Source: Branchiostoma lanceolatum | Lineage: Eukaryota; Chordata; Leptocardii; Amphioxiformes; Branchiostomatidae | DNA length: 64,000 bases | Assembly (NCBI RefSeq): GCF_035083965.1 | Contig: NC_089738.1 | Location: forward strand, 13,418,734-13,482,733 | Direction of reading: 5' to 3' | Part shown: positions 474-64,000 of the stretch, in pieces | Layout: the number at the start of each line of letters is the position of its first letter | Numbering within the stretch: the first letter of the stretch is position 1 | The notes under the pieces: model-generated | The model's database searches: none | Told to the model about the DNA's origin: nothing | What the model saw: the letters and a program-made list of their open reading frames with translations, nothing else | Position numbers and translations under genes: made by a program

Positions 474-3192
474 GAGAATCGTTCCTGTTGGTAACCGTTA
501 TGGGGGGAATTCTCCAAATTGATGTCAAAGACGGGTCAAAGATCACGGTCGCTTCATCTTCGTCGCAAGCATATCGGAGGCCCAGTCGGACCCTGGACTA
601 CGACCCTATGACTGACTTCGTGTACTGGGTAGGAATGGAGGGCACCAAACGAGTTCGTCGTGATGGACGTAGGGTGGAGACCATCATGGAATCTCATATC
701 AATTGTGGGTGATATTCTGCCTTTTACTTTATTTGTTACTGTCTATCATTCTGTGTACAGTATATCGTATGGAATTTCAAATATATAAACTAGTGCTACC
801 GTAGCATTCACTGATATTGTAGATTACACATATTCTGATAATGCTAATAAAAGTCAATGTTATATGTGCTTCCTTGTTGCCATGGTTAAACATCCACCAT
901 AACGCTTTCAGTAAAATGTCGCTGTCGTTGAAATTATAATCTTAACGTTATTGGAAAAAAGTGCTTTTCACTCTTTTCTGATTTTTTTTTACTGCAACTT
1001 ATGATGATATATATTTAGCCTATGGCCTGAGATTGGACCATGCTGGGGGGAATATCTACTGGAACGACTACGGTTCTCAAAATATCTTAGTAGCCCGGAA
1101 GGACGGATCGTTCGCCAAGACACTTCTGACGTCGCGCATCGAGAGGCCTCACGGGCTGGTCTTGGACCCTAGAAACGGGTGATTCTATCAGACACAAGCA
1201 TGACTTGAAAAAAGTGGCGTGCATGCCATCGTTTAAGACTTAGGGTGTCCACACCACATGTTATGTTCAATGCTTTCCATTCCAATACTTTGCCACCAAT
1301 TGATCAACAGAAGACGTGCACAAAGACATGTTGGAGCTCTTGTCACCCTTTCTAAAATCTGTTTCTTTTATCCCGCTCAGTATATTGCTCAAAGGAAACT
1401 ACTTTCCTGAACATCTGTGAACTAATAGGTCACAGTGTTGAGAAACAGGTAGCATTTCCCCAGCTATGAAAGAGTTTCCTTTTCCCATTGTGCGATGCAA
1501 GCTTAACATATGTCAATGATTATGCAAACGAATTGTTTGCTGACTGGATACAATTCTGCTTGCTTGGGTACCATCCAGCATACTGGCTCTCCCTTTTCGC
1601 TTGCGTACCACGTGGACAAAAAATGAGAGCCAGGGGTACAGAGCCCGGACTTTTGAGGCACTTATGACAGAACTATGACTTAGGTACTGTTATCTGAGGA
1701 CAGTACCTAAGCCATAGTTCTGTCATAAGTGCCTCAAAAGTTAGGTGGCAGCTTTATTATTCTGCTCTCCAGATAAAAAGTGTTTCTTCTGTTTCCCGAC
1801 ATTTATTTTCACAGACTCATGTACTTGACGAGCAGGGGTGATAACCCCAGAATTGACAGAGCTGCGATGGACGGCAGCAACCTCACTACCATCATCAGCA
1901 ACCTGACTTCCCCCTCGGCCATTACAATAGACTACGAAGGTGATCGGTGATACATACATTATGGAAACCACCCATCCGTACAAAGAGGACAAAATGTGTT
2001 ACAACTGTTGGAGGTTCAACACAAATGTATCATTTTGTGACTAATTTTTGAAATGGGTCGCGACACATTGCGTTTTAGCATTCACTCATGAATCATGCAA
2101 ATCACTCCAAGTATGAGATTCCCATCATTTACCGTATATGGAATTGTACTATTTTCTCATTGACTAGGCAAATTTGGTCTTCATTTGCAGAATTTATGTT
2201 GATATTCCTCTCTAGATCAGTTACATAATCATAGAATATGTTTGAATAGTCCCATCATGAAATACCTTTGCATTTATACAATTTCGTCGTTTATTATGAA
2301 AATCAGATGATGATTTGCATTATTGCAATGTCATCCTTTCAATTATCATTAAAGCTAAATACGTACGATCACGACGATCCGTTAACCCCTGATGAGTTCT
2401 CTTTCATTTTTGATTCGTATTTTTGATGTGTTTGAAAAAAATGTATTCTATTCCTCCCATTCAGAGGATCGGCTGTACTACTGTGATGATCGCAGCATCT
2501 TCAGCTCAGACCTGCTCGGCAACGACCAACGGCGACTGTTCTATGAAGATGGGACTTGCTATTATGGAATTGCGGTTGATGATGACTACGTCTACTGGAC
2601 GTCATATATGGCAGGCGTAATCCGAATGTGAGGATATTTTCTTTATCTTCTTGATACATGTTCTTCCCTGTAAGGCAGCTGTAATTACCAAATGAAGATC
2701 TTTTAGGCTAATACAAAGGAAATACTGTTTTACACGTTTTGCTTTCATTTTTCCCTATGGTGATTTGGTTTATGGAAAATGATATGGTTATTTGCTTTAC
2801 CGAAAGGTTAGATTCTATTCCAACTAAAACAAAGGACTCACCGGAATTTTTGACGGAATCAGTCCGTCTTCTTCAGCACTCTGACCCAATCGCTCTGGTC
2901 ACGTGTCGCACGTCTGACGTCAGCAATGGGTCAAAGGTTGTTGGAAGTCGATACCTCCCCCGTCCCATGTTTATGAGTTAGAGAAAAAGGTTAACCTTTC
3001 CATAATTTACCCGTAATTCACTGACTCTTTTCGATGAAGTTTCATGCAAATGATGAATTGCTGTTACATTTCACATCTCCAGGTCATCCAAGTCCAACAT
3101 GAATCAGACTGTTACTGTTCTGGTCGATGACGTTACACGCCCAGGCGACATCTACGTGACCACGACATCGACCATTAACATAACCAGTAATG
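474..3192 (+). CDS. Exons encoding an LDLR-type YWTD beta-propeller
   Basis: Five exons (474-704, 1019-1178, 1815-1939, 2465-2627, 3083-3192; residues about 1-262 of the visible protein) carry repeated YWTD-class blades: VYWVG, IYWND, MYLTS, LYYCD and VYWTS. Each sits in the usual pattern of a hydrophobic strand, an 'I-x-R-x-x-x-DG' turn and 'GL-x-L/V-D'. The count fits one six-bladed propeller as found in LDLR, LRP and nidogen, and the EGF exon follows directly, as it does in those proteins. In LRP family members this unit binds protein ligands or drives acid-dependent ligand release. The first exon begins at about the first strand of a propeller, so little of this domain should be missing. 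Confidence 0.85.
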
Positions 3193-6100
3193 GTAATCAC
3201 ACTTGACAAGCGTTTGTGTGTTTGTAACGATGATTTTAACGATAATTTCATACAAAGTATACAGTCTCAGACATGTATATGCAAATCAAGCCCTATTTCC
3301 ATACTTGATAATAACAGTTTGCAAATGTGTCGAGTCTTGTAACTCTTGTTACATCTTATAAAAGCTTTGCCATTATAAGAACCTACAGTCTTCATCAACT
3401 GACTCGTTAGTATGAATTTGATCAAATCTTGCAATTGTTACTTTCTAGTCTCTACTAAATTTAACGTTATACGTCTTCTCGCTAGGGTGTTCGTCGTCCA
3501 ATGGAGGCTGTCAGGAGTTGTGCCTTGCTCATCCAGGAGGATGGACGTGCGCCTGCCGGGATACATGGGAACTGCAGGAAGATGGAGTGACTTGTGAGTT
3601 AGCATATGGTGGCTGGTATATCCCAAGCAGATTTTCAGCGTATAAGCGGCAGTTAAGCCTTGGCGTAACGTATGCTAATGACATTGCGTTCATGAATGAT
3701 GTACATCAAGCACAAAATAACGGAACTCAGCCATAGAAGCTGGTGTCATGTTCTTTACGACCACATCTTTATGAACAGAGAATCAACCAAATTTGTAAAA
3801 TTTCATCACAGATAACAAAGAAATGAACCATTTATAGTAAAAAGTATAATGCCTTTAATAGGTTGTCTCTCTGGCTACACTGCATACGGAGGTGCATGCT
3901 TCAAGGCGTACGACCAAGACGAGACCTGCAACCAGGCCAGACAGGTGTGCGCAGCGGACGGGGGGCGCCTGGCCATGCCGAAGAACAGGCACGTCGACAA
4001 CTTCTTGAGGGATCTCAAGAACGCATTGGATGACAATTCACGTTTTTGGTTTGGCCTAAATGATCAGAACGATGAGGGTGAGTGGGTGTGGGAAGACGGG
4101 ACTCCACATGACACAACTACTGACTGGAATCAATGGCAGCCGGACGAACCCAACGATAATGAGGGAGGAGAAGACTGTGCGAACTACTATGGTTCAGGAT
4201 GGAATGACGCACCGTGCACCTCTGCTTACAAGTTTATCTGCCAGTTGAAAAAATGTATGTCACATAACATTTTGTATAGTTAATATTTGTTAGAGGTTGA
4301 CGTTGATTCAATCAATTAATCATTCGCAGGCATCAGTGTCTGATGCATACTTCTGCAAAAGTACCTTGTAGGAGATTTAGGCCAAATGATATACGATAAT
4401 TACCATTTGACTCGCCCTGGAGTCGTTGCCAAAATAGTTTTATCACTACACAAGTCTACTCATTTCATGCAACAGGGAAGTCGCGTTGTAGCAGATCGTA
4501 GCGTGATCAATCAAACATCATGAAGGAAACGTTGATATGTATTAATGTTTTACTGCCAGCTTTACCAAAGTGGAAGATTGAAAACTTAACAGTTAAGTTT
4601 TATTTTTTCAGATTACGCATGATTTATTCAAGATCATAAATCAATACATTTATGAACTGTTTCCATGCACAGCGATAACCTGCACTCTGGGATACTTCCG
4701 CTGTGGGGACGGACGTGCGTGTATCCTGTCATGGAAGCGTTGTGATGGGATCACCGACTGTACGGACGGGAGTGATGAGGAGGGTTGTGGTAAGCACTGT
4801 CATGACGCCATGTACATAAACTTTGTAGTTGTTCGTAGATTAGAAGACATTAGATACTTCCGACCCAAAGGGCACTTCTAAAGGTTTGGCGTGAGAGGGG
4901 GTTATTTCTGATAAAAAAGGACAGTGTGTTGGTGGTATCAAACAACTAGATGTTACGCATGGTACTGCACACGAAAGCACAAAGCTCCACTGAAATGTGT
5001 TTTGATTTTAGTATTTTGTTTTCAGTTTCAAACATTGTTCTCCTGTCAAATTAGCAATAGGCTAGAGAAATAAGGTAAGCTACTCTCGTCGTCTGTATTG
5101 CATGTCTTCTCGAACAAAACAAATGACTGATCAAATAATTCGTCTCCTTTCTATGTTGCAATTGACTACGGTACTGAATGCTTACAAGTATCAAAATAAT
5201 CTGAAATGGCATAATCTATTCTTTAAAACAATTCCAGCGTGTCTGCCGATACCTAGGGATTTTCAACTCGGCAGGAGACTTACAATGCTACCTAATCAGC
5301 TGGGCCAGATGAAGTTTGAGGAGATACAGAATTCATCTGTCGTGGAGCTGCTCAACGGTTCCTACAGCAACCTGGGAAAGTACCACCCAGAGTTAAGAAA
5401 ATTCGTAACAACGGTCATTTTCCCTCAATGCAATGTCTCCGAAGAGAGCAAGATTCGGCCCCCTTCGTATTCAATCACATTCAACGGAACCTCGTTCATG
5501 TGAGTGAAAACAAAGTTTCACATGCATATGGCAATGCTTTTGATAATTTAATATTTTGAAAAGTTGCGTGTTTAACAACAGCCTTCGATGCCACTTAATC
5601 ACTCCCATATTTCAACGTACTTGATAACTGGAATCGAATGGCATGCTTTCACTAATATATGGAACATGAGCAACATGAGGTCTGTTTACGCGCAACAAAA
5701 AAGCAAACATCACGTTGTAAAGGTGGTACTTACACCAGCCGGTACTAAATCTATTTATGTCTCTTAGGCGTAACGTTACGGGTACACAACTGGTACCATG
5801 CCGCTCGTGGTGTGAGGAAGTGCTCAACATGGCTGATGACTGGATAAAGAACCTGCTGCCTCGATGTGACTTGTTTCCATCATCCGAAGATGGTTGTTGG
5901 AATTCCATTCCAACCAAGAAGGAAAACGAAGGTGAAAAAGAAGACTTTGTTTTGCACTTTCCTCTGCAAGTAGTATCTAATTCTTATGTCAATCGGCTTC
6001 TGCCATGTCGTTTTTCTGTATATCAACTTTGCTGATCAGACTGTGCCTTAAGGTATAAAACGATACATAGTTGGGTTTTATTTTCTGCCACTTGTGACAG

Positions 6101-9100
6101 CATTTGGTTATTGTGTCTCTTAGTCATAACGTAAGTTTGACTTCGGCACACTTCCTCAGGGATGAATAACTTCGTACATATATATTATCAACTTCGCTTG
6201 TCCTCAGTTTGCTACCATGGCATTGGCGTAAACTACCGTGGTACATGGAGTAAAACTACATCCGGGTCAGATTGTGTTGAGTGGACAGTTGCGCAAGCCG
6301 GTTACTACAAGACAGAGTACCCATGGGCTAACCTGGACAATAACTACTGCCGCAACCCTACCGGTCTCGATCGGCCATTTTGTTTGACCGAAGACGATAG
6401 CCAGGAGGAATGTGACGCTATTCCGTGTGGTAAGTTGTCATGTAACGAAACTATGATTGAAGTACGTACTACCAGAAATAAAGATATTTCATCACTGTGA
6501 TTAAAAGGTATATGTATATGATTGTACAATACACATCTAATCATATTTGGAGTTGTAGTTATAGTTATAGTGTCCTCCTTAACCGAACCGTTCGTCATTT
6601 TCATTTTGGACCATATAAGCCACCTCTCTTGTGTGCTACTGGCTAGCTCATCAGAGGATTGTTATATCTTACCACACCAGATGTAGAAGGCTGCTGGGAC
6701 AGAGGTCCCCCAAACTACGGCAAGAGAAGTCCAAGCAAGAGGTTCTACTACTCAGGAGAACGGGTCACGTACACGTGCAACGAAGGGTACACACTCAAGT
6801 CAGGTTACACTAGGGAAGTGAGGTGCATCGGAGGGGGCATCTGGCAATATGACAAGCCCAGTTGTTCAGGTGATTCTTAGAGTCTCAGTCTCTGCAACAG
6901 GTGAATTGCACAAAGCTTTATCTAAGCCTACCACCTTTTTACGTGCCCAGCAAAATATTATCAACCATTTAACATTTCCATGGCAAATAGATACGCAGAG
7001 CAGCAAAGTTCAGCTGGAGTCCCTACAAGATTAGTACAACGATTATGTTCGGTACATTATATAGCTAATACAAGATCTAAAATACCACAATTAGTTCATT
7101 TGAAAATATTGATTATTTTGTCGGCGGATGTGTTTCATAATTTTTGGGTACAAAACATGTCATGATAAATCTAACATTTACAAGTTTGCGCATAATCACT
7201 GTCTTCACAAGTGTGGACCTATTAACACGAGCACCTTTCCTGTAGTAAACCATCGGCGAAGGCTGCAGGAGGAGCTACTGGAGATTTATAGTGCAAGTCT
7301 ACCACCTGAGAATGTCATCATCAACTTCACTTTTTCTGTGGAACAGATAGTCGACTTGGTAAGTACTGTTATCTGTTACACATTTGACATATCCCGTTTG
7401 ATTTCCAACAGGAGATTCCTTTTATTTATTTCTAATTTTATAAAATTGCAACAAGGCAAGGCATCCTAGGCAGCAATAGCTGATATCAGGCGTCTAACAC
7501 ATAGCTAATACAAAAACAATGTTGTAATATTACGCATGTATACAAACATAAATTCCTAACATACACAATAACAATGATAATGAAATATTAAAGGAAATTC
7601 CTTGTGGGAGCAGATTGCATCTTAATTAATGCTGTTACTCTATTTCAGGATGAAAAGAAGGAGCAACTTGTCGCGTCTGTCGCTATCGATTTCGTAAGTT
7701 GCCACAGCTACAAAACTTTACTGACGCCATTTTGGCATTGAGACCTTAACAACCTTTTCCATTGTCATTGTCGGCTTGCACGGTAAAATGTCATTGTTTT
7801 TTGCTAGACGTGGCAAGACGGCCGACTGAGTTGGGATCCGAAATACTACGATGACATCACTACACTCAGCGTTCCGGGCAACAGAATTTGGACTCCAACA
7901 TTGACTTTACAGAGAAAGTACGTTGTTATATTCCCCTTCCAGTGGGAAGGGGGATATACTGTTTTTGCTTGCCTGTTCTTCTTCTTCTTCTTCTTCTTCT
8001 TCTTCTTTCTTCTGCCAAAAACCAAGTAGATGTGAGGTGGTGGCTCTACTAGTGCTATTACAGAAATTTACACATGTATGTACCTTATGTTACATGGCAC
8101 GGATGTTATATTTGACATGTAGGTACCTATAGGAAAGGTGAATACACCTGACAATAAATTATGCTAATGAGGACCTAATTTGCATAATCTATGCAGAAAC
8201 TTGTATTTCCCTTACCGTAAAAGCTGCGGATGTCATATTTGAGATGTAGGTACCTTTAGGACAGGCGAACACACCTGGCCATGGATTATGCTAATGAGGA
8301 CCTCATTTACATAATTTATGCAGAAACTTGTATTTCCCTTACCGTAAAGGCTGTGGATGTCATCTTTAAGATGTAGGTACCTTTAGGAAAGGTGAATGCA
8401 CCTGGCCATAAATTATGCTAATGAGGACCTCATTTGCATAATTTATGCAGGAACTTGTATTTCCCTTACCGTTAAAGCTGCAGATGTCATATTTGAGATG
8501 TAGGTACCTTTAGGGAAGGTGAACACGCTTGGCCATGAATTATGCTAATGAGGACCTCATTCGCATAATTTATGCAGAAACTTGTACTTCCCTCACCCTA
8601 AAAGCTGCAGATGTCATATTTGAGATGTAGGTACCTTTAGGAAAGGTGATCACACCTGGCCATGAATTATGCTAATGAGGACCTCATTTACATAATTTAT
8701 GCAGAAACTTGTATTTCCCTTCCCGTAAAAGCTGCAGATGTTATATTTGAGATGTACGTACCTTTAGGAAAGGTGAATACACCTGGCCATGAATTATGCT
8801 AACGAGGACCTCATTTGCATAATTTATGCAGAAACTTATATTTCCCTTACCGTACAAGCTACAGATGTCATATTTGAGATGTAGGTACCTTTAGGAAAGG
8901 TGAATGTACCTGGACATAAATATGATAATGAGGACCTCATTGGCATAATTTATGTAGAAACTTGTATTTCCCTTACCGTAAAAGCTGCAGATGTCATGTT
9001 TGGGATGTAGGTACTTTTAGGAAAGGTGAACACACATGGCCATGAATTATGCTAATGAGGACCTTATTTGCATAATTTATGCATAAACTAGTATTTTCCT

Positions 9101-11932
9101 TCCCGTTAAAGCTACGGATGTCATATCTGAGATGTAGGTACCATTAGGAAAGGTCAGAAAACCTGGTCATAAATTATGCTAATGAGGGCCTCGTTTGCAT
9201 AATTTATGCAGAAACTTCATAATACCCTAGTTGCTTCTTCAATTTACCCACTTGACAGTAATAAAACAGTACACCAAATGTCTTTCAAAGAATGTTAGAT
9301 ATTGATTTACTCCACATGATTGTAAATATGAATGTTAACGTCGTAACCTAGTATTTTACCGACTGTATGTTTAATGTAATGATCATGTTTTCCCCAGGGT
9401 TTTCCCTTAGAAACTAGCTTTCGCTAGTTGCGCAACCCTAGGATGTAAATACAATGTACATGCTGAACCAATAAATAGCTAGATAAACTAAAACAATGGC
9501 CAAACATGATACAATTCTACGCTATCCCAGTACGGACTGTGCGAGCTGTACACTGCAAAATTATGTAGTTACCCAAAAAATACAATTTTTGATACAGATT
9601 AAAAAAGAAAAATGCCCGAATTTTTTTGGTTTGCTTCCCAGTGCTGATCCAGGTGAGAAAGGCCTACGTAATGAAGTACCGGTCCGAGTGAGCAGTAATG
9701 GCCGGGTGGAATGGAGTGTAGAGACCCTGACTACCACCGTGTGCAATGCAGACCCGTTCTACTTTCCTGCAGACACCATGGAATGCCACATCTGTTTTTC
9801 TGCAGCTACAGCAATCAAGCAAACCATTCGTAAGGCTTTTACGGATTATGCTTTGTGCCAATTTGGTTTAATATCATTACTGCTTACAGCAATGTCCATA
9901 CCATAACCATGATACAAAACCTTTCAGAGGTGTGGCATTTGTGGAAAAGAAAATATCATCTTTGAACAAAAGGATACCAGATTTTGCAACTAGGGGTTGT
10001 TACTTACATAGGATAAACTTTTGTCGTCATCAACCACAATAAAAAAATGGCTTGTTTTTATATCTGGTACATGTTATCCTGATGGCAACAAAACATATCA
10101 AGTGATAATTTATTGGAACCATATGTTGAACATAGAATGCCAGGGAGGGAGGTCTTCAGCAGACAACAGAAACAGTCCGTGTAACTCTTATTCTACTGCA
10201 AAAACGGAGGGCGAGTGGTACAGAAAGGATAATATCTTCGCAAAAGACAACAGGGAGGCGTGCTTTACTGTTCATCTGGCGAGGATCCCCACGTTCCACA
10301 TCGCCACGACTGTTGGACCCTGCATCATCCTGGTGGTGTTGATGATCATCACCTTCATCTTGCCACTGGACAGGGGAGACCGGATCTCGTTCGGAGTGAC
10401 CATTCAACTCTCCATGGTCGTATCTCTTGTATTTGTGACAGACGTACTTCCTGTCAAGGGAGCTTTGCCATTTTTTGGTGAGTGAAATTGAATAAGATTA
10501 GACTGTCGTCAGATTCAGTTTTATTTACATTTTCATGTACAAAGGGGCTCATGATTTTTAAGATTCACTTATTAAAACATAACTATAATATTACGAATTT
10601 ACAGATAACTTTCGCAAACAGATTGAAAATAAGACGAGTTTAGTTTCACTTATACATAAACAATTCACCAACTTGACAGTCAGAGAAGTGAATTGGAGTT
10701 ACATTAGTTGCTCAATGTTCACCCATAACACTGTTGAACAGTACAGTAAAACTTGGTGGTATTGGTAGTCAGTACGTGTGGTAGAACAGTTTTTGTAATC
10801 AAGGAATGTTTTAAAAACCATTTGTTCTACATATCTATAACCTTAGGTTGTTTTGATGTGACTTATTCAGCATTCTTTCAGCTGTTTACCATGTGTAATG
10901 TTACAGCTACGCTGATCATCGTGTGGATGGGGCTGATGGGAATTTTCCTCTTTGTCACTGTGGCCATCATCGTTCTTCACGACCGGGAGGGCAGCCTGTC
11001 TCCGTCGACGAAGATAATTTTTCTCCGCTACATTTCAAAGTACCTACAATTCGTTCCAACACATTTGGGTTTCTTTTTTCTCTGTGTATACTATATTATG
11101 TAATTATATATTATACATATACAATTAAAGCTCAGTGATAATTCCGTCACAATATATCTGTTGTTTTAGAGAAATAAACCATTCTACTGCTACTACTACT
11201 AATGATCCGATATATTTGTTCACCTACAACTTCTTTGATACTATGTATTTGAAGAAGGTATCATTAGATTTTACTAATTTCTTCAATGAGGGTTTTCACT
11301 TTATTGTTTCTTTGGTCTGTTTGCTGGTAGGTCGGTTGGTTGGTATGTTTTCTGTCTTCTAAGATGAGGAATACTTTTCGTTCAGTACATCGTCCATGAA
11401 GAATATGAATATAAACAATAAACTGTAAACAGCATTGAGAAGCATTTGCGTCATTTAATCTTTTTCCCGTTATTGTTTGTTATCAAGGATACTGCTGTTG
11501 GGTGATCTAACAGAAGAGAAGCGTGCAAGCGATGGAGAGACAGGCCTGGCCAACCACCCTGCCATAAAGCTGACCAACTACGTCTTTGAAACCGATGGCA
11601 AGGCGGTGGTCAAGGTCAAAATACATGACGGTGGCAATGAGAGGGCCGGGCAGCCGTCAACGCCTCCCACCGGTCTGGAGGCCAACGGTTCCTCCCGCAT
11701 TCCTGAGCTGATCTCCAGTGTGAAGGAGTTAACCAGGGTGATGAAGACCGAGATGGGGGAGCTGACTACGGCGGTTCATAACCAGACAGAGGAGCTAAAC
11801 AAGACCATGAAGAACGAGGAGGAGGTGTCCGACTACACCCTGCTGGCTAAGGTCCTGGACCGGCTGTGTCTTGTCATGTACATCATCAGCATCGTGGCAG
11901 CCGTCCCCATGACCATGTATTTGGCCAAGTAG
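474..11932 (+). CDS. Chimeric YWTD-EGF-lectin-LDLa-Frizzled-kringle-sushi / Cys-loop channel protein (5' partial)
   Basis: Nineteen exons join in one frame: 474-704, 1019-1178, 1815-1939, 2465-2627, 3083-3192, 3486-3593, 3862-4254, 4673-4789, 5238-5499, 5768-5931, 6208-6429, 6681-6869, 7246-7358, 7649-7693, 7808-7917, 9642-9829, about 10103-10477, 10907-11039 and 11488-11932 (stop TAG). All junctions have GT/AG and compatible phases, and the total divides by three (about 1216 aa from the first visible codon). Predicted product: a type I-like ectodomain of adhesion/endocytic modules fused to a four-pass pentameric channel subunit at the plasma membrane. The acceptor of the 10103 exon is uncertain; 10136 and 10160 also keep frame, and 10160 gives the usual receptor length. 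The start codon and signal peptide are not seen and may lie left of the window. The alternative, two adjacent genes split after the sushi exon, is less likely because exon 7246 has no convincing start or signal peptide and continues the phase-1 chain. Domain entries follow. Confidence 0.8.
1649..1741. repeat. Near-perfect 42-bp inverted repeat (hairpin) in a propeller intron
   Basis: The left arm at 1649-1690 and the right arm at 1700-1741 are reverse complements with one mismatch, separated by a 9-nt loop. It lies in the intron between the exons ending at 1178 and starting at 1815. It could be a small foldback element, a recent inverted duplication or a hairpin RNA source. A weaker inverted repeat (CTGGCTCTC / GAGAGCCAG) lies just upstream at about 1579-1635. 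Confidence 0.85.
3486..3593 (+). CDS. Exon encoding an LRP-type EGF-like domain
   Basis: The exon encodes about 36 residues with six cysteines in EGF spacing, including the signature CSSSNGGCQELC and GWTCAC. It lies immediately after the propeller, the standard propeller-EGF packing unit of LDLR/LRP proteins. It is a symmetrical phase 1-1 exon. No calcium-binding consensus is obvious. Confidence 0.88.
3862..4254 (+). CDS. Exon encoding a C-type lectin domain
   Basis: A single 393-nt phase 1-1 exon encodes about 131 residues. It starts with CLSGYTAYGGACFK, has the conserved WFGLND core and ends with the EPN...WND...CxxxYKFICQ signature. EPN plus WND are the calcium and sugar ligands of mannose-type C-type lectins, so calcium-dependent carbohydrate binding is plausible (inference). 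All four core cysteines are present and nothing is truncated. Confidence 0.92.
4673..4789 (+). CDS. Exon encoding an LDL-receptor class A repeat
   Basis: The exon encodes about 39 residues with six cysteines and the calcium-cage motif CDGITDCTDGSDE. This is a complete LDLa module on a phase 1-1 exon. In LDLR/LRP proteins such modules bind basic patches on ligands. Confidence 0.92.
5238..5931 (+). CDS. Two exons encoding a divergent Frizzled-like cysteine-rich domain
   Basis: Exons 5238-5499 and 5768-5931 (residues about 469-610) resemble the Frizzled CRD. There is an opening CLPI, then a long helix region with 'LPNQLGQ' and 'YHPELRKF', and a C-terminal 'PCRSWCEEV...LPRCDLFP...DGCW'. Only six of the usual ten cysteines are present; the cysteines expected around 'LPN' and after 'YHPELRKF' are missing. 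CRDs of this type also occur in corin and some receptor kinases, where they stand beside LDLa or kringle modules. Wnt binding cannot be assumed. Confidence 0.8.
6208..6429 (+). CDS. Exon encoding a kringle domain
   Basis: A phase 1-1 exon of about 74 residues has the six kringle cysteines and the hallmark segments CYHGIGVNYRGTWS, NNYCRNPTG, RPFC and the closing CDAIPC. Kringles occur in haemostatic proteases, ROR kinases and Kremen. This one has no protease beside it. The usual lysine-binding DxD motif is not evident, so lysine binding is not predicted. Confidence 0.92.
6681..6869 (+). CDS. Exon encoding a sushi (CCP) domain
   Basis: A phase 1-1 exon of about 63 residues has four cysteines in CCP order: GCWDRGPPNYG, VTYTCNEGY, EVRCIGGG and the terminal IWQYDKPSCS. 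This is a complete sushi module. It is the last ectodomain module before the channel part. Confidence 0.9.
7246..11932 (+). CDS. Exons encoding a Cys-loop (nicotinic-type) channel subunit
   Basis: Exons 7246-7358, 7649-7693, 7808-7917 and 9642-9829, plus the start of the next exon, form the ligand-binding domain: 'VDLDEKKEQL', 'TWQDGRLSWDPKYY', 'IWTPTL', 'RNADPG', and a canonical Cys-loop of two cysteines separated by 13 residues with YFPAD inside. The 10103-10477 exon encodes M1 (FHIATTVGPC...) and M2 (DRISFGVTIQLSMVV...). Exon 10907-11039 encodes M3, and 11488-11932 encodes the cytoplasmic loop, an amphipathic helix and M4 (DYTLLAKVLDRLCLVMYII). Asp at -1', Leu at 9' and Asp at 20' of M2 predict cation selectivity. 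The aromatic box is degenerate: there is no Trp in loop B and no YxCC in loop C, so acetylcholine is an unlikely ligand. Confidence 0.9.
7927..9220. mobile_element. Intronic hairpin-microsatellite-tandem-repeat element
   Basis: Three parts lie in order within the intron that separates two ligand-binding-domain exons (7917 and 9642). First comes a terminal hairpin (TTCCCCTTCC / GGAAGGGGGA) at about 7927-7957. A TTC microsatellite follows at 7977-8009. About nine head-to-tail copies of a roughly 125-128 bp unit then run from about 8064 to 9220. Each unit contains GATGTAGGTACCTTTAGG and ATGCTAATGAGGACCTCATT. The layout resembles non-autonomous Helitron-related (pearl/HINE-type) elements; that class is an inference from architecture only. 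Confidence 0.7.
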
Positions 11933-18399: not shown

Positions 18400-19060
18400 T
18401 TGCATCAAGGAGAAAATGACATATGCATTAAACTCGATACGCTGAGAAAACTTAGCAGACTTAACTGTGTATTTGGTTACATGTTGCAGTTATGTACGTC
18501 TATCAACAAAACTGAATGTTCACATGATGTACATACATTGTTGGATTCGACATATTTTGACCCAAGTAGAAACATGCATGCCTTTGTAAGTGGTAGATTT
18601 ACGGCGGTCAAAGTATCACAGGCTGATTTCGAGGGAGAAATATACTCGTACTTAGACGAAGCATGTAAAGCCCTGAATATCACCCATGTTTAATATCAAG
18701 CACGTCCCAATACCGGTGCAGTATATACACGTACATATCTTGCTTAAACCTATGACCAAACGGCGACAATAAAACGAGAATTTGGATTTATTTCAAGGGA
18801 TTTTGTCTTCTGTTTTGGAGGGAAATAATAATTGAAGAATCTCACTCTGATTTGCCTTGATCTGGCCTTGATGAAAAGACATACAGCTAGGGCTACTCAA
18901 TCAGCCGGAGGCTATCATAAAGAGTTAGCCCTGGTAACTGGACAGCATAGAAACTCAATAAACAATACAAACGGTTACAATGCACAGTTAAATGCGTTGA
19001 CAGTTTTTAAGTAGGTTACACAAATTATGGAGAACAGTGAATTCTTTTAGACACTGAGAG
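18400..19060. repeat. Duplicated 3' flank (copy 1 side)
   Basis: About 18480-18840 matches 25262-25615 after copy 2, and about 18880-19010 matches 26690-26815. The two matched parts are contiguous here but split by an inserted element after copy 2. This shows that the duplication unit included the downstream flank. Confidence 0.75.
18768..18773 (+). other. Candidate polyadenylation signal, copy 1
   Basis: AATAAA lies about 490 nt after the copy 1 stop, within a block that is duplicated after copy 2 with the same hexamer at 25534. The conservation in both flanks supports a functional 3' end. Confidence 0.45.
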
Positions 19061-19199
19061 ATAAAAAAACAAACGTTACAAGGCTGTCTAAAAGCTATTT
19101 GGCTTGATCTGTATATATATACGCTATGTACAATATCAAGGCAGTACGTTCAGTACGTACAGTGTTTGTTATCAAGCGATAGGTGCTAATATAACTCAG

Positions 19200-20060
19200 A
19201 CCATATATATATAGAATACAACACGTAGGCCGGAGGGCGATCCGACCCGCGGGAGGGCTGGGACCGAGGGTGATGCGGAATACACCGTGTTGTATCTTAT
19301 TTATGTCATACTCACCCGAGAAAACACACATTTCAATACGGAATGCACCAGAAGTTGAGGGAGTTTTGTGTCCTTGAACAAAAAACTGTAACAACACTGA
19401 TTCCAACCTCCGAATCCGGTATTTGAATTTTCGACGGCGGCGCAACCGGCGCGCTCGAAATGCATTCTAAATATTCAATGGAAGCCCGTGTGATACGGAA
19501 AATCATGTCATGCCTGGGCCTGATACGGGTGTTCCGGACCATGTGATAAGTATCCGGATCACATGGGGTTCGAGAGTGTTATCACACAGGCTTCCATAGA
19601 AAATTTCGAACGCATTTCGAGCGCGCTGGTTGCGCCGCCGTCGGAAATTCGAACGCCGGATTCGGAGATTGGAATCAATGTTGCTACAGTTTTTTGTTCG
19701 AGGACACAAAACCCCCTCAACTTCTGGCGCATTCCGCATTGAAATGTGTGTTTTCTCGGGTGGGTATGACCAAGGTATGACATAAATAAAATACAACACG
19801 TCGTATTCCGAATCACCGTCGGTCCCAGCCCTGCCGCGGGTCGGATCTACGGCCGGAGGGCGATCCGACCCGCGGTCGGGCTGGTACCTCGGGTGATACG
19901 GAATAGCCCGTGTTGTATTCTATATTTATCACACGGTCCGGAACACCCGTATCGAACGTTTTGGCGGCCCAGGTATGACATAAATATAGAATACAACACG
20001 GGGTATTCCGTATCACCCGAGGTACCAGCCCGACGGCGGGTAGGATCGCCCGAGGCATAA
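19200..20060. repeat. GC-rich palindromic repeat cluster, left
   Basis: A cluster of direct and inverted modules contains ATACAACACGG, TATTCCGTATCACCCG, TATGACATAAATA and GGGCGATCCGACCCGCGG. It lies between transporter copies 1 and 2. The same modules recur at 50517-51672. GC content is well above the surroundings. The nested inverted units suggest a foldback or MITE family that has self-inserted or been rearranged. No coding capacity is evident. Confidence 0.8.
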
Positions 20061-22026
20061 TGATAGCTAAGCCAGGTATGACATAAAGGCTCTTATTACC
20101 ATTGGGCCGGTACGCGGGAAGTCATGTACAATGGAACCACGTGACACGCGTCCAGCAAAGTGTTACAACAGACAGCAGTATAGCCTGACTAAATCCCGCC
20201 CCTACCAGCCCATCAGACTGACCAGCATTCGCGGGAGAGGCCAATTCAAAGATAGCTGACCTGGCAGCGAGAGATTGTATAACACAGGCGTACGACAGGT
20301 GAGATTAGCAAATTTGGTGCATCACCAAGAACAGCCGTAAACATATACCGAGCTGTATATATAGGTGAGTCTGTTGTGCCCTACTGCGGCATCAAGACCT
20401 AGAATTAGCTATAGACACAGCGCCAGTCGCAAGGTTTAAAGCATTTGTATGTTATAATGCATAGACTTTTTGTGAAGATTTGATTCAGTGAAGTGAGAAG
20501 AGTTCTAGGATCAGTGTATTGATACGGATACGACCTACGTCATAGAACTAGTATAGTATATTATGGGCAGATGTTAGCTCAGAACACAATGCATGGTCTC
20601 AGAACATACTACCTCGAATACAAACAAATGATCTCTCTGTTGGTGGCATTTGATATAAGTCACTGGTGATGTTGTGTTTTTTTAATGATCTTCATGTCTA
20701 TAACTTTCCAGCAATAAGTGATTTGGAACGATGTCTAAATGTAAAACTTAACGACACTTCGCATTGATTATAGAACTGTGGCGTGAAACCAAACGTCAAT
20801 CAAATAATTCTGGGTCATTCTGTACAGGGCTTGGTAGGGTCAAAGGGCAACATGTATCCCGGGGATAGTAACAGCTACCTGGAAAAGTCTCCCATAGTTG
20901 TCTGGCATATAGCACATCCTATGTGTCTGAGCGGTTGGACGGGTTTAGGCTTTATGATTAAGTACATAAATCATGTCATATTATAAGACTGATAAGACTA
21001 GATCTGGTACTAGGGGTGACCAATAAGTGCTGGGAATCACCAATGAATAAGGTGCACAACTCAAATTCCGGGGCATAATTAAGAAGAAAGTCTTTTATTA
21101 ATTTGTAGCAAAATTTAGAGAAGCACACACACACACACACACACACATAGCGATCCTTACTTTAAAGGCGACACGTTCATGACGTTTGGAGAGATCTAGA
21201 GATAGGAAGAAAAACAGTCGACAATTGAGCTGGCCATGTGACCTGAGGTGTTCGGGCCAACTTGTTCGGCTGAAAGTTAGATTTCCACTTCTTCTAGTAG
21301 AGATATGAATGGAATCCTTATTAGACATTTTGACAATAATGTCCGCGAAGATTTCATGGCATGAGGAACTCGACCCAAACAGCTCTGATCACAGTTCATC
21401 CTTGTTTCCTTGTTTTTCTCGCCACTTGCCTACTGATTTTCAAAAGGACGTCGACTGGAAAGTAATGACCACAATGATTTCAAATTTGGTGGATGTTGAT
21501 TTATTATGCCACAAACTTACAGTTGTGCATCTTATTTCCTGGTGAGGCCCATATCCAGAAGTTATTGACCCCCTCTTACCTTACAAAACTTAGTGTTACC
21601 GCATCTATTAAAGATGAATAGGAAAATTGAGATATTGTCGAGCCTTCCCGGTAACGTTACATGTTATCACCGTAGAGTGGTCTCCAGATCATGCAAAACA
21701 ACCTACGGTACTTGCAAGAACTAGTCATCAAGGTTCACAGACCGTTTACGGTAAAGCTTTAAGGATCGGCAGTCTGCAGTTTGCAAGGTTGCTATATCTG
21801 AGGTGGTAGGAAAATGCATTATTATGCCTTTTCCCATATGGTGTGCACCATGCAATAGCTAACATACTGTATGTAAATGTAAATATATCTAAAGCTTTAT
21901 GAACAGGTATAGTCGATCTCAACAAAAGTGCATGGCCATGTCTGATAAACAACTGTCGGCCAGTGTGACGAAACATGCTATTTTTGTCATTCCAGAACAA
22001 GAATCTTTCACTGTCTTTCTGCCGAA
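20061..22026. other. Upstream flank of transporter copy 2
   Basis: No exon is recognised. Parts of this flank (about 20100-20900 and 21640-21830) match the flanks before copy 3 (27100-28830) and before copy 6 (43680-45300). The shared stretches include the phrase around 'gcgatgcggaaagcc' in the latter two. A short CA microsatellite sits at 21124-21147. Confidence 0.55.
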
Positions 22027-50350: not shown

Positions 50351-50516
50351 ACCTATGTTATAGGGTTATGCGTGAAATTGAGCATAAAACGAATGATGTG
50401 TAGAGTTTTTAACGTATATGAAGCCAATGGCATTTTCATAACTGTGGGATAAGGTGAAGCAATAACGTATATTCTTTATCTTCATATTTTCTTTAAGTAT
50501 GTGGCAACGTTTTTTA

Positions 50517-51672
50517 GGTCATACCTGGGCCGCGAAAACGTTCGATACGGGTGTTCCGCATCGTGTGATAAATATAGAATACAACACGGGGTATTCCGTA
50601 TCACCCGAGGTGCCAGCCCGACCGCGGGTCGGATCGCCCGACGGCCGTAGGCCGGAGGGCGATCCGACCCGCGGGAGGGCTGGGACCGAGGGTGATGCGG
50701 AATACAACGTGTTGTATTTTATTTATGTCATACCTTAGTCATACCCACCCGAGAAAACACACATTTCAATGCGGAATGCGCCAGAAGTTCAGGGAGTTTT
50801 GTGTCTTCGAACAAGAAACTGTAGCAACATTGATTCCAATCTCCGAATCCGGTATTCGAATTTCCGACGGCCGCACAACCGGCGCGCTCGAAATGCGTTC
50901 GAAATATTCTATGGAAGCCTGTGTGATAACACTTCCGAACCCTATGTGATCCGGATAGTTATCACACGGTCCGGAACACCCGTATCAGGCCCAGGCATGA
51001 CATAAATTTCCGTATCACACGGGCTTCCATAGAATATTTAGAACGTATTTCGAGTGCGCCGGTTGCGAAAATTCGAATACCGGATTCGGAGGTTGGAATC
51101 GATGTTGTTACGATTTCTTTTGTTCGAGGACACAAAACTCTCTCAACTTCAGGCGCATTTTGCATTGAAATGTTTTTTTTTTTTGGTGGGTGGGTGGGTG
51201 GGTATGACATAAATAAAATACCACACGGTGTATTCCGCATCATCCTCGGTCCCGGCCCTCCGGGCGATACGACCCGCGGTCGGGCCGGTACCCCGGTCGA
51301 TACGGGATACACCGTGTTGTATTCTATATTTATGTCATACCCGGGCCGCGAAAACGTTAGATACGGGTGTTCCAGACCGGGTGATAACTTTGGGTTATCA
51401 CACGGGCTTTCATAGAATATTTAGAATGCATTTCGAGTGCGCTACTGCCGAACATTCGAATACTGGATTCGGGCGTTGGAATGTGCGGCTGTTACAATTT
51501 TTTGTTCGTGGACACCAACTTTTCTCAACTTCGGTCGCACTTCGCATTAAAATGTGTGTTTTCTCGGGTGGGTATGACATAAACAAAATACAACACGGTG
51601 TATTTCGCATCACCCTCGGTCCCAACCCTCCCGCGGGTGATACGGAATACCCCGTGTTGTATTCTATATCAG
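50517..51672. repeat. GC-rich palindromic repeat cluster, right
   Basis: It has the same modules as 19200-20060 (ATACAACACGG, TATTCCGTATCACCCG, GGGCGATCCGACCCGCGG, CGGAACACCCGTATC), arranged as several direct and inverted copies. It begins about 170 nt after the stop of copy 6. Together with the left cluster it brackets copies 2-6. Confidence 0.8.
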
Positions 51673-56192: not shown

Positions 56193-56836
56193 ATTTTGAT
56201 ACACAGATTAACAGATCTACACGTTTCCTACAACATTTAGATGATAATAAAAGGAAAGCCTAAAACAATAAAGCACCCACATATGGCAGGGCGGTTGACA
56301 ACAGAACCTTCTAAGTATTTTGTGAAACTTTTTCTGTCCTACTTTTAGTTCCTTTTTCATTGGTTATACAATAGGCATGTCTTGCAACCTGTAGTTGGAC
56401 AACATTGAAAATGGCAGTATACAGTGTGGAACAGTTGAAATGGGTTTTCCTTAAGTGTTCATTGTTTAAAGAAGTGATCATACTTTTTGTGAAGTGCCAA
56501 TACATCCTGAGGTTGAACAACACTTCTTACTGCAATATTTTGTAAGGTGGAAGAGACAAAACAAGTCTTCATTGTTCAAGCAAATTTCAATCATTTCTTT
56601 TACCTAGTTGTTCCTCTCTTGCAGTCATTGCGTATCTTTGCCCAGGTTACATGATGGTTTTGAAGTAGAAACATGTTTATTCTAGTTTCACATTGATCTA
56701 AAAAAGAGATTGCAGTTGCCACTGATCAAGACTTCAGCTATAAAAGGGAAAAGTACTGTACTCATTTGGCTTAGTTTGAGCACAAGATGTTTCGTTCCTC
56801 GACTTTTCCTGGCTTCGAGAAAGAAACCTGTCGGTT

Positions 56837-64000
<7,164 letters not shown>

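What the first reader, a model, noticed from the sequence alone, without database searches (positions are those of the whole stretch)
474..11932. Candidate new protein architecture: receptor/lectin ectodomain fused to a Cys-loop ion channel
Seen: nineteen exons with matching phases encode YWTD propeller, EGF, C-type lectin, LDLa, Frizzled-like CRD, kringle, sushi and then a full Cys-loop subunit with M1-M4 and a stop. The summed length is a multiple of three. Known: each family is common alone, but I know of no described channel with this ectodomain. Inference: a pentamer would display five copies of a multi-ligand capture module, so binding of sugars, lipoproteins or complement-like ligands might gate or position a cation channel. 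This is the best candidate here for an undescribed system.
Basis: partly seen in the sequence, partly recalled or inferred. Interest (0 to 1): 0.92.

Follow-up and report, generated by a model that had tools for sequence, protein, structure and literature searches.

The report
Lancelet ion channels with recognition ectodomains
Lancelets carry a large, apparently undescribed family of nerve-receptor-type ion channels whose outer ends are fused to sugar-, lipid- and complement-type recognition domains, and whose usual neurotransmitter pocket is lost, so they may turn contact with a surface or molecule directly into an electrical signal.

Summary
A 19-exon gene (474-11932, +; 18 of 18 junctions GT-AG and phase-matched) encodes a YWTD propeller, EGF, C-type lectin, LDLa, Frizzled CRD, kringle and sushi, then a complete Cys-loop subunit. 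Its 5' end lies outside the window. It is almost certainly one gene: three protein searches returned 152 Branchiostoma relatives, and 86 of 89 alignable channels have kringle-sushi immediately in front, with a nearly fixed joint. The module before this core varies (lectin, CUB, discoidin, MAM, pentraxin, SRCR, propeller). Over 90 channel sequences the Cys-loop, gating and cation-filter residues are kept, but the acetylcholine site is gone: loop B Trp 0 of 90, loop C 19-24 residues against 30. No non-lancelet member was found, within limits of word-based searches. No description was found in a partial open-access library. Architecture and family: about 0.95. Function, a cation channel gated or positioned by ectodomain recognition, is inference: about 0.4. 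Rivals: non-alpha partner or anchored synaptic subunit; chemoreceptor with a remodelled pocket; LBD-less isoform. New variant of a known kind, high interest.

The parts
474..3192 (+). Exons 1-5 (474-704, 1019-1178, 1815-1939, 2465-2627, 3083-3192): YWTD (LDL-receptor class B) propeller; 5' end open, acceptor at 472-473
   Evidence: splice model; PF00058, 3.1e-12, 2 stretches; P0047, P0049 align from residue 2 and have a leader just before. Exon 5 has no tblastn match to relatives but aligns at 43-54% in P0007, P0008, P0009
3486..3593 (+). Exon 6, phase 1-1: EGF-like (FXa_inhibition)
   Evidence: (PF14670, 9.9e-10)
3862..4254 (+). Exon 7, phase 1-1: C-type lectin domain with EPN and WND motifs
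   Evidence: (PF00059, 5.6e-21)
4673..4789 (+). Exon 8, phase 1-1: LDL-receptor class A module with DCTDGSDEEGC
   Evidence: (PF00057, 6.4e-10)
5238..5931 (+). Exons 9-10 (5238-5499, 5768-5931): Frizzled-type cysteine-rich domain
6208..6429 (+). Exon 11, phase 1-1: kringle
   Evidence: (PF00051, 1.3e-14)
6681..6869 (+). Exon 12, phase 1-1: sushi/CCP; in the relative P0007 the last sushi Cys (706) is four residues before the first LBD helix (710-721)
   Evidence: (PF00084, 1.9e-5)
7246..9829 (+). Exons 13-16 (7246-7358, 7649-7693, 7808-7917, 9642-9829): Cys-loop ligand-binding domain through the Cys-loop (13 residues between the cysteines)
   Evidence: (PF02931, 2e-31; nAChR alpha-4 chimera, 2.6e-36)
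10136..10477 (+). Exon 17: shortened loop C hairpin, pre-M1, M1, selectivity filter (GDR) and M2
10907..11039 (+). Exon 18: M3 and start of the cytoplasmic loop
11488..11932 (+). Exon 19: M3-M4 cytoplasmic loop, M4 and stop codon (an MA helix is predicted in the relative P0007)

Best explanation
It is one gene of a lancelet family of Cys-loop cation channel subunits. In this family a collar (usually LDLa, Frizzled CRD, kringle, sushi) is joined almost without linker to the first helix of the ligand-binding domain, and a changeable recognition module sits on top; here that is a YWTD propeller, EGF and a mannose-type C-type lectin. Shown by sequence: the gene structure, the family, the conserved joint, the conserved pore and gating residues, and the loss of the acetylcholine pocket. 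Inferred: subunits assemble as pentamers, alone or with relatives; the outer modules bind glycans, lipids or surface proteins; and this binding, passed through the short sushi-LBD joint, opens or positions a cation pore that no longer answers to acetylcholine. The use would be surface or contact sensing, sensory or innate-immune.
For: Single gene: 18/18 phase-matched GT-AG junctions; relatives with the whole run in one protein, for example P0047, P0049, P0007; kringle-sushi directly before the channel in 86 of 89 aligned relatives, Fz-kringle-sushi in 80, LDLa-Fz-kringle-sushi in 63; last sushi Cys to loop D Trp 55-60 residues in 67 of 83 measured rows; junction 12/13 gap-free against 7 of 7 relatives; no leader in the sushi-LBD intron. 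Family: 101 of 103, 81 of 81 and 65 of 65 hits are Branchiostoma. Constraint: median identity to the window within its clade is kringle 81% (29 of 32 rows), sushi 79% (32), LBD 73% (28), M1-M3 84% (31), cytoplasmic loop 47% (30). Cation channel: -1' acidic 89/90, 9' Leu 88/90, 20' acidic 70/90, Cys-loop cysteines 89 and 90 of 90. Acetylcholine site lost: loop A Tyr 2/90, loop B Trp 0/90, first loop C Cys 0/90; loop C 19-23 residues in 80 rows and 20-24 in 9 of the 10 others, against 30 in alpha-4, the one reference used. Recognition: EPN and WND in 22 of 38 CTLDs of adequate length; at least 10 changes of the front module on the channel tree.
Against: No transcript, protein, current, localisation or ligand evidence. 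The donor at 6870 is weak. Loop D Trp is kept in 88/90, which fits use of the complementary face in a heteromer with a small agonist. In 31 of 153 database models the match begins within the channel, seven of them starting at the Met two residues before the second Cys-loop cysteine; these may be bad models, but an LBD-less transcript would look the same. 16 of 38 CTLDs lack the EPN/WND pair and 5 of these lack both EPN/EPD and WND, so not all can be mannose binders. The Frizzled CRD (65%) is less conserved than the LBD. The full-length model is weak overall (pLDDT 64.8, pTM 0.43). Searches scored only about 8,000 word-sharing candidates each, so members outside lancelets could be missed.
Confidence: 0.45

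Rival explanations
1. The ectodomain does not gate; it anchors or clusters the channel at a synapse or matrix, as LEV-10/LEV-9 or MuSK do in trans elsewhere (recalled), and the subunit is a non-alpha partner in heteropentamers with ordinary acetylcholine-binding alpha subunits.
For: Loop D Trp is kept in 88/90 while principal-face residues are lost; Frizzled CRD and kringle are domains of MuSK/ROR receptors (folds); amphioxus has several nAChR clades with expansions (PMC6354393 passages).
Against: Ordinary non-alpha subunits keep a longer loop C and usually loop B Trp (recalled, not tested); here both are gone. The front module is swapped, which is odd for a common anchor.
Confidence: 0.25
2. 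Chemoreceptor like the octopus chemotactile receptors: the remodelled LBD pocket binds new, perhaps greasy, small molecules, and the ectodomain only concentrates or delivers them.
For: Octopus receptors are nAChR-derived channels that no longer bind acetylcholine (PMC11526382 passages); family expansion and loss of the aromatic box are seen here too.
Against: Loop C, the cap of the pocket, is about 6-11 residues shorter than in alpha-4 in the 89 of 90 rows measured, and in the P0007 model its strands are joined by three residues. Whether pocket positions diversify was not tested; the LBD as a whole (73%) is less variable than the cytoplasmic loop (47%) and the Frizzled CRD (65%).
Confidence: 0.15
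3. Some transcripts start in the long intron 7918-9641 and make a pore subunit without most of the LBD, from the conserved Met of 'MECHIC'.
For: Seven of the 31 models whose match begins within the channel start at that Met, from three assemblies.
Against: This start splits the Cys-loop; gene finders place a start at the first available Met when 5' exons are missed; longer models exist for many relatives.
Confidence: 0.1
4. Two adjacent genes, or a fused gene model, read as one.
For: Database models in this family are often broken, the donor at 6870 is weak, and no transcripts were at hand.
Against: Kringle-sushi precedes the channel in 86 of 89 aligned relatives with a fixed joint; a leaderless LBD exon would have to start a gene; no leader found.
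Confidence: 0.03

Closest known systems
Nicotinic acetylcholine / 5-HT3 receptor subunits (cation Cys-loop receptors)
   Same: LBD plus four TM helices, Cys-loop of 13, FPxD, pre-M1 Arg, acidic -1', Leu 9'; best solved relatives alpha-4, muscle alpha and beta, alpha-7, 5-HT3A; 45- and 110-bp exons 14 and 15 like vertebrate nAChR exons 3 and 4 (recalled)
   Different: Mosaic ectodomain; aromatic box and first vicinal cysteine of loop C lost; loop C shortened; extra invariant cysteines
Prokaryotic pLGICs with N-terminal sensor domains (PBP-I, Cache/MCP-N fusions; DeCLIC)
   Same: Extra ligand-binding domains N-terminal to the LBD (PMC549065 passages; DeCLIC from a search listing only)
   Different: Other domains; prokaryotic; Tasneem et al. 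contrast them with the simple animal architecture
Octopus and squid chemotactile receptors
   Same: Lineage-specific nAChR derivatives not activated by acetylcholine (PMC11526382 passages)
   Different: No mosaic ectodomain that I know of (recalled); their LBD pocket is the ligand site, whereas here its cap is shortened
ROR/MuSK (Frizzled CRD, kringle) and MFRP/corin (CUB, LDLa, Frizzled) surface proteins (domain orders recalled)
   Same: Neighbouring LDLa-Frizzled and Frizzled-kringle; folds matched to Fz4 and MuSK CRD and ROR1/ROR2 kringles; relative P0075 is named MFRP in a database
   Different: None of them carries a channel (recalled)

Membership tests
Cys-loop receptor (pLGIC) superfamily | Cys-loop with 13 residues between cysteines and FPxD motif | tested here: met
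   C-NADPFYFPADTME-C in the window; cysteines 89 and 90, F/P/D 89/89/90 of 90 rows
Cys-loop receptor (pLGIC) superfamily | Beta-sandwich LBD plus M1-M4 | tested here: met
   Pfam LBD and memb; model of relative P0007 with LBD strands 732-901, M1 903-926, M2 931-955, M3 964-990, M4 1111-1142; Foldseek best E 5.2e-24, nAChR
Cys-loop receptor (pLGIC) superfamily | Pentameric assembly and ion conduction | not testable with these tools
   needs expression
Cation-selective Cys-loop channels | Acidic -1' and 20', no Pro-Ala at -2'/-1' (rule recalled) | tested here: met
   GDR in the window; -1' D/E 89/90, 20' D/E 70/90, -2' Gly 87/90
Nicotinic acetylcholine receptor, agonist-binding (alpha) subunit | Vicinal cysteines and tyrosines of loop C | tested here: not met
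   first Cys column Ala/Gly/Ser in 89 rows, gap in 1; second column holds a Cys in 89, but the loop is shorter so that match is arbitrary; the two Tyr columns show no Tyr
Nicotinic acetylcholine receptor, agonist-binding (alpha) subunit | Loop A Tyr and loop B Trp | tested here: not met
   Tyr 2/90 (P0095, P0097), Trp 0/90; 6 rows have Phe at loop B
Nicotinic acetylcholine receptor | Loop D Trp of the complementary face | tested here: met
   88 of 90, 2 gaps
Frizzled CRD | Frizzled CRD fold | tested here: met
Frizzled CRD | Pfam Fz gathering score | tested here: not met
   18.8 of 32.1 bits in the window
Sugar-binding C-type lectin (mannose type) | EPN and WND motifs (rule recalled) | tested here: met
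   both in the window; both in 22 of 38 CTLDs of adequate length
Octopus chemotactile receptors | Orthology with the cephalopod clade | not tested
   no cephalopod sequences were fetched
ROR/MuSK receptors | Tyrosine kinase domain | tested here: not met
   Pfam finds none in the joined protein

The most novel reading that the evidence does not exclude
Lancelets possess a germline repertoire, perhaps dozens of genes per species, of recognition ion channels. Exon shuffling keeps replacing the tip (lectin, CUB, discoidin, SRCR, pentraxin, MAM, YWTD) on a constant Fz-kringle-sushi collar fused to a cation pore freed from neurotransmitter control. Recognition of microbial, food or tissue surfaces is thereby turned directly into ion flux, an immune or sensory receptor class not known to me from any animal.
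Probability: 0.3. Interest if true: 0.95.

Novelty: new variant of a known kind. Interest (0 to 1): 0.82.

Why it matters
Animal Cys-loop receptors were described as having one stereotyped architecture (Tasneem et al., PMC549065, passages), and Jaiteh et al. noted that associations with other domains were evidenced only at the genome level and needed experiments (PMC4795631, section 15). A lancelet family with swappable recognition heads, a conserved collar and an erased agonist pocket would be a natural experiment on how these channels can be opened from above the LBD. If the heads see microbes or food, it would join innate recognition or contact chemosensation directly to electrical signalling at the base of the chordates. 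It gives concrete constructs to test.

Tried and rejected

Counts that I narrowed: of 100 proteins matching sushi plus channel, 89 spanned it and were aligned with the window, giving 90 rows; the loop C pattern parsed 80 of 90, a second pattern 9 of the other 10 (P0063 not measured); 84 rows had the sushi Cys and 83 were measured for the joint. The 86-row tree left out P0001, P0048 and short rows; its labels are precomputed Pfam lists that I copied by hand, while labels come from phmmer with family modules and cover 59 of 86 rows. Truncated models can mimic module loss; 30 of 152 proteins show none of the modules. Database proteins are 90%-identity cluster representatives from several assemblies, so 152 is not a gene count; species were typed from the names. 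Some of the 101 lancelet hits cover the query little (P0100 25%, P0101 19%).

Papers: ten searches were made; eight bear on whether the family is described and none showed it; the library lacks most subscription journals. Of PMC549065, PMC6354393 and PMC11526382 I saw passages; of PMC4795631 passages and section 15; all others only in listings. PMC6354393 reports amphioxus-specific nAChR expansions; I did not check whether any of those genes belong to this family. Statements marked recalled come from no call.

Full report
What was checked. I rebuilt the gene from the sequence. Nineteen exons between 474 and 11932 on the + strand join through 18 GT-AG introns, all phase-compatible, into 1206 residues ending in a stop. 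The summed exon length is 3620; one further base comes from an exon upstream of the window, because exon 1 opens in phase 1 after an acceptor. A few donors are weak, including gtgatt at 6870. The two wrong frames of the joined exons hold 53 and 64 stops, and the third codon position is GC-rich against the introns.

Is it one gene? Relatives bear on this without transcripts. A search with the part from the kringle on gave 103 proteins, 101 of them Branchiostoma; the other two match at 10-13% coverage only. A search with the channel part alone, restricted by length to proteins of about 660-2100 residues, gave 81 of 81 Branchiostoma, and a channel-only profile 65 of 65. Each search scored only the roughly 8,000 candidates sharing most words. 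Together they hold 152 lancelet cluster representatives from B. belcheri, B. floridae, B. lanceolatum and two hybrid assemblies. Of 89 relatives whose channel could be aligned, 86 have kringle-sushi directly before it, 80 Fz-kringle-sushi and 63 LDLa-Fz-kringle-sushi. P0047, P0049 and P0054 have a leader directly before the propeller and the other modules after it. The last sushi cysteine lies 55-60 residues before the loop D tryptophan in 67 of 83 measured rows. The joint reads C-S/L-V-N-H-x-x-R-L-Q in 7 of 14 relatives looked at, and junction 12/13 is gap-free against 7 of 7 relatives; junction 9/10, inside the Frizzled domain, is gapped against 6 of 7, so it is less sure. The sushi-LBD intron holds no ATG frame with a hydrophobic leader. 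In 31 of 153 models the match to the window begins within the channel; those I looked at open at internal methionines, not at leaders.

The closest database protein is P0129 of B. lanceolatum, 92% identical over 323 residues and itself starting in mid Cys-loop. The window is therefore probably from that species or a near one, and the deposited model misses most of the gene or of its sister.

What the family looks like. The recurrent order is variable module(s), LDLa, Frizzled CRD, kringle, sushi, channel. Variable modules include C-type lectin, CUB, discoidin (F5/8), YWTD propeller, pentraxin, MAM, WSC and SRCR. On a channel tree of 86 rows, 22 of the 25 rows outside the window's larger 61-row group carry CUB, while the window's own 33-row clade contains lectin, CUB and discoidin forms. 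For 59 rows with a clear neighbour of the core, at least 10 changes of that module are needed; 200 label shuffles need 20 or more, mean 25.8. So modules are inherited but were replaced repeatedly. The tree is unrooted, and broken gene models can inflate the number. Exons 6, 7, 8, 11 and 12 are symmetrical phase 1-1, and the Frizzled pair is 1-2/2-1, the usual mark of exon shuffling (recalled).

What is kept and what is lost in the channel. Over 90 rows the Cys-loop cysteines, FPxD, pre-M1 arginine, 9' leucine and acidic -1' are present in 88-90; 20' is acidic in 70. These are the marks of a working cation pore. The acetylcholine site is not kept: loop A Tyr in 2, loop B Trp in 0 (Phe in 6), loop C without its first vicinal cysteine. 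The span from the beta-9 Trp to the pre-M1 Arg is 19-23 residues in 80 rows and 20-24 in 9 more, against 30 in alpha-4, the single reference used. In the model of P0007 the two strands of that hairpin (879-888, 892-901) are joined by three residues. Loop D Trp is kept in 88. Further cysteines are invariant (C848, C867, C894 in P0007; 55 sequences). Within the window's clade kringle and sushi (81 and 79% median identity) are more conserved than the LBD (73%), the Frizzled domain less (65%); a kringle is found in 25 of 25 CUB-type rows and a sushi in 23. The kringle-sushi collar thus looks like part of the machine and not a passenger.

How it most likely works. Shown by sequence: fusion, family, conserved joint, conserved pore, erased pocket. 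Inferred: with hardly any linker between sushi and the first LBD helix, force or rearrangement of the collar reaches the LBD directly, and the swappable head decides what is recognised. I give about 0.4 to head-gated or head-positioned function and 0.95 to the architecture. Rivals with their tests are listed; the strongest is a non-alpha partner subunit whose loop D face serves an ordinary alpha subunit.

Place among known things. It belongs to the Cys-loop superfamily by every sequence test made. It fails the tests for an acetylcholine-binding nAChR subunit. It resembles octopus chemotactile receptors in being a lineage-specific nAChR-type channel without the acetylcholine site (PMC11526382 passages), and prokaryotic fusions in having extra sensor domains (PMC549065 passages), but as far as I know shares the ectodomain with neither. 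Eight literature searches bearing on the question showed no description; that library is incomplete.

Noticed in passing
window 16900-49800: Array of six similar large ORFs on the + strand beside the channel gene (16947, 23475, 30170, 36713, 41196, 48767); three of the six were scanned and are MFS_1; monocarboxylate-transporter-like by eye.
   Followed up: partly
window 8102-9217: 127-bp minisatellite, 8.8 copies, 88% matches, fills most of intron 15, just before the exon in which several database models start.
   Followed up: partly
P0044, P0047, P0049, P0051, P0059 (after the first LBD helix): Repeat inserts such as (TDNPT)n between the first LBD helix and strand 1; nine rows have a joint of 87-158 residues instead of 55-60. 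The top loop of the LBD tolerates a length-variable repeat.
   Followed up: partly
P0129, P0132, P0133, P0135, P0138, P0145, P0151: Seven database models start at the same Met (MECHIC-like) two residues before the second Cys-loop cysteine: recurrent artefact or a transcript lacking most of the LBD.
   Followed up: partly
P0007 C848, C867, C894: Three further invariant cysteines in the LBD, perhaps extra disulphides near loops F and C.
   Followed up: no
P0107: B. floridae model with a divergent channel (35% identity), discoidin before it and LRR plus Ig after it; may be a merged model.
   Followed up: partly
window 19000-20100 and 50500-51400: Dispersed repeats with matching ORF fragments on both strands; part of one database protein (P0024) matches them.
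   Followed up: no
window 56700-62750, - strand: RG/RGG- and PPSRG-rich frames, perhaps an RNA-binding protein gene; judged by eye.
   Followed up: no
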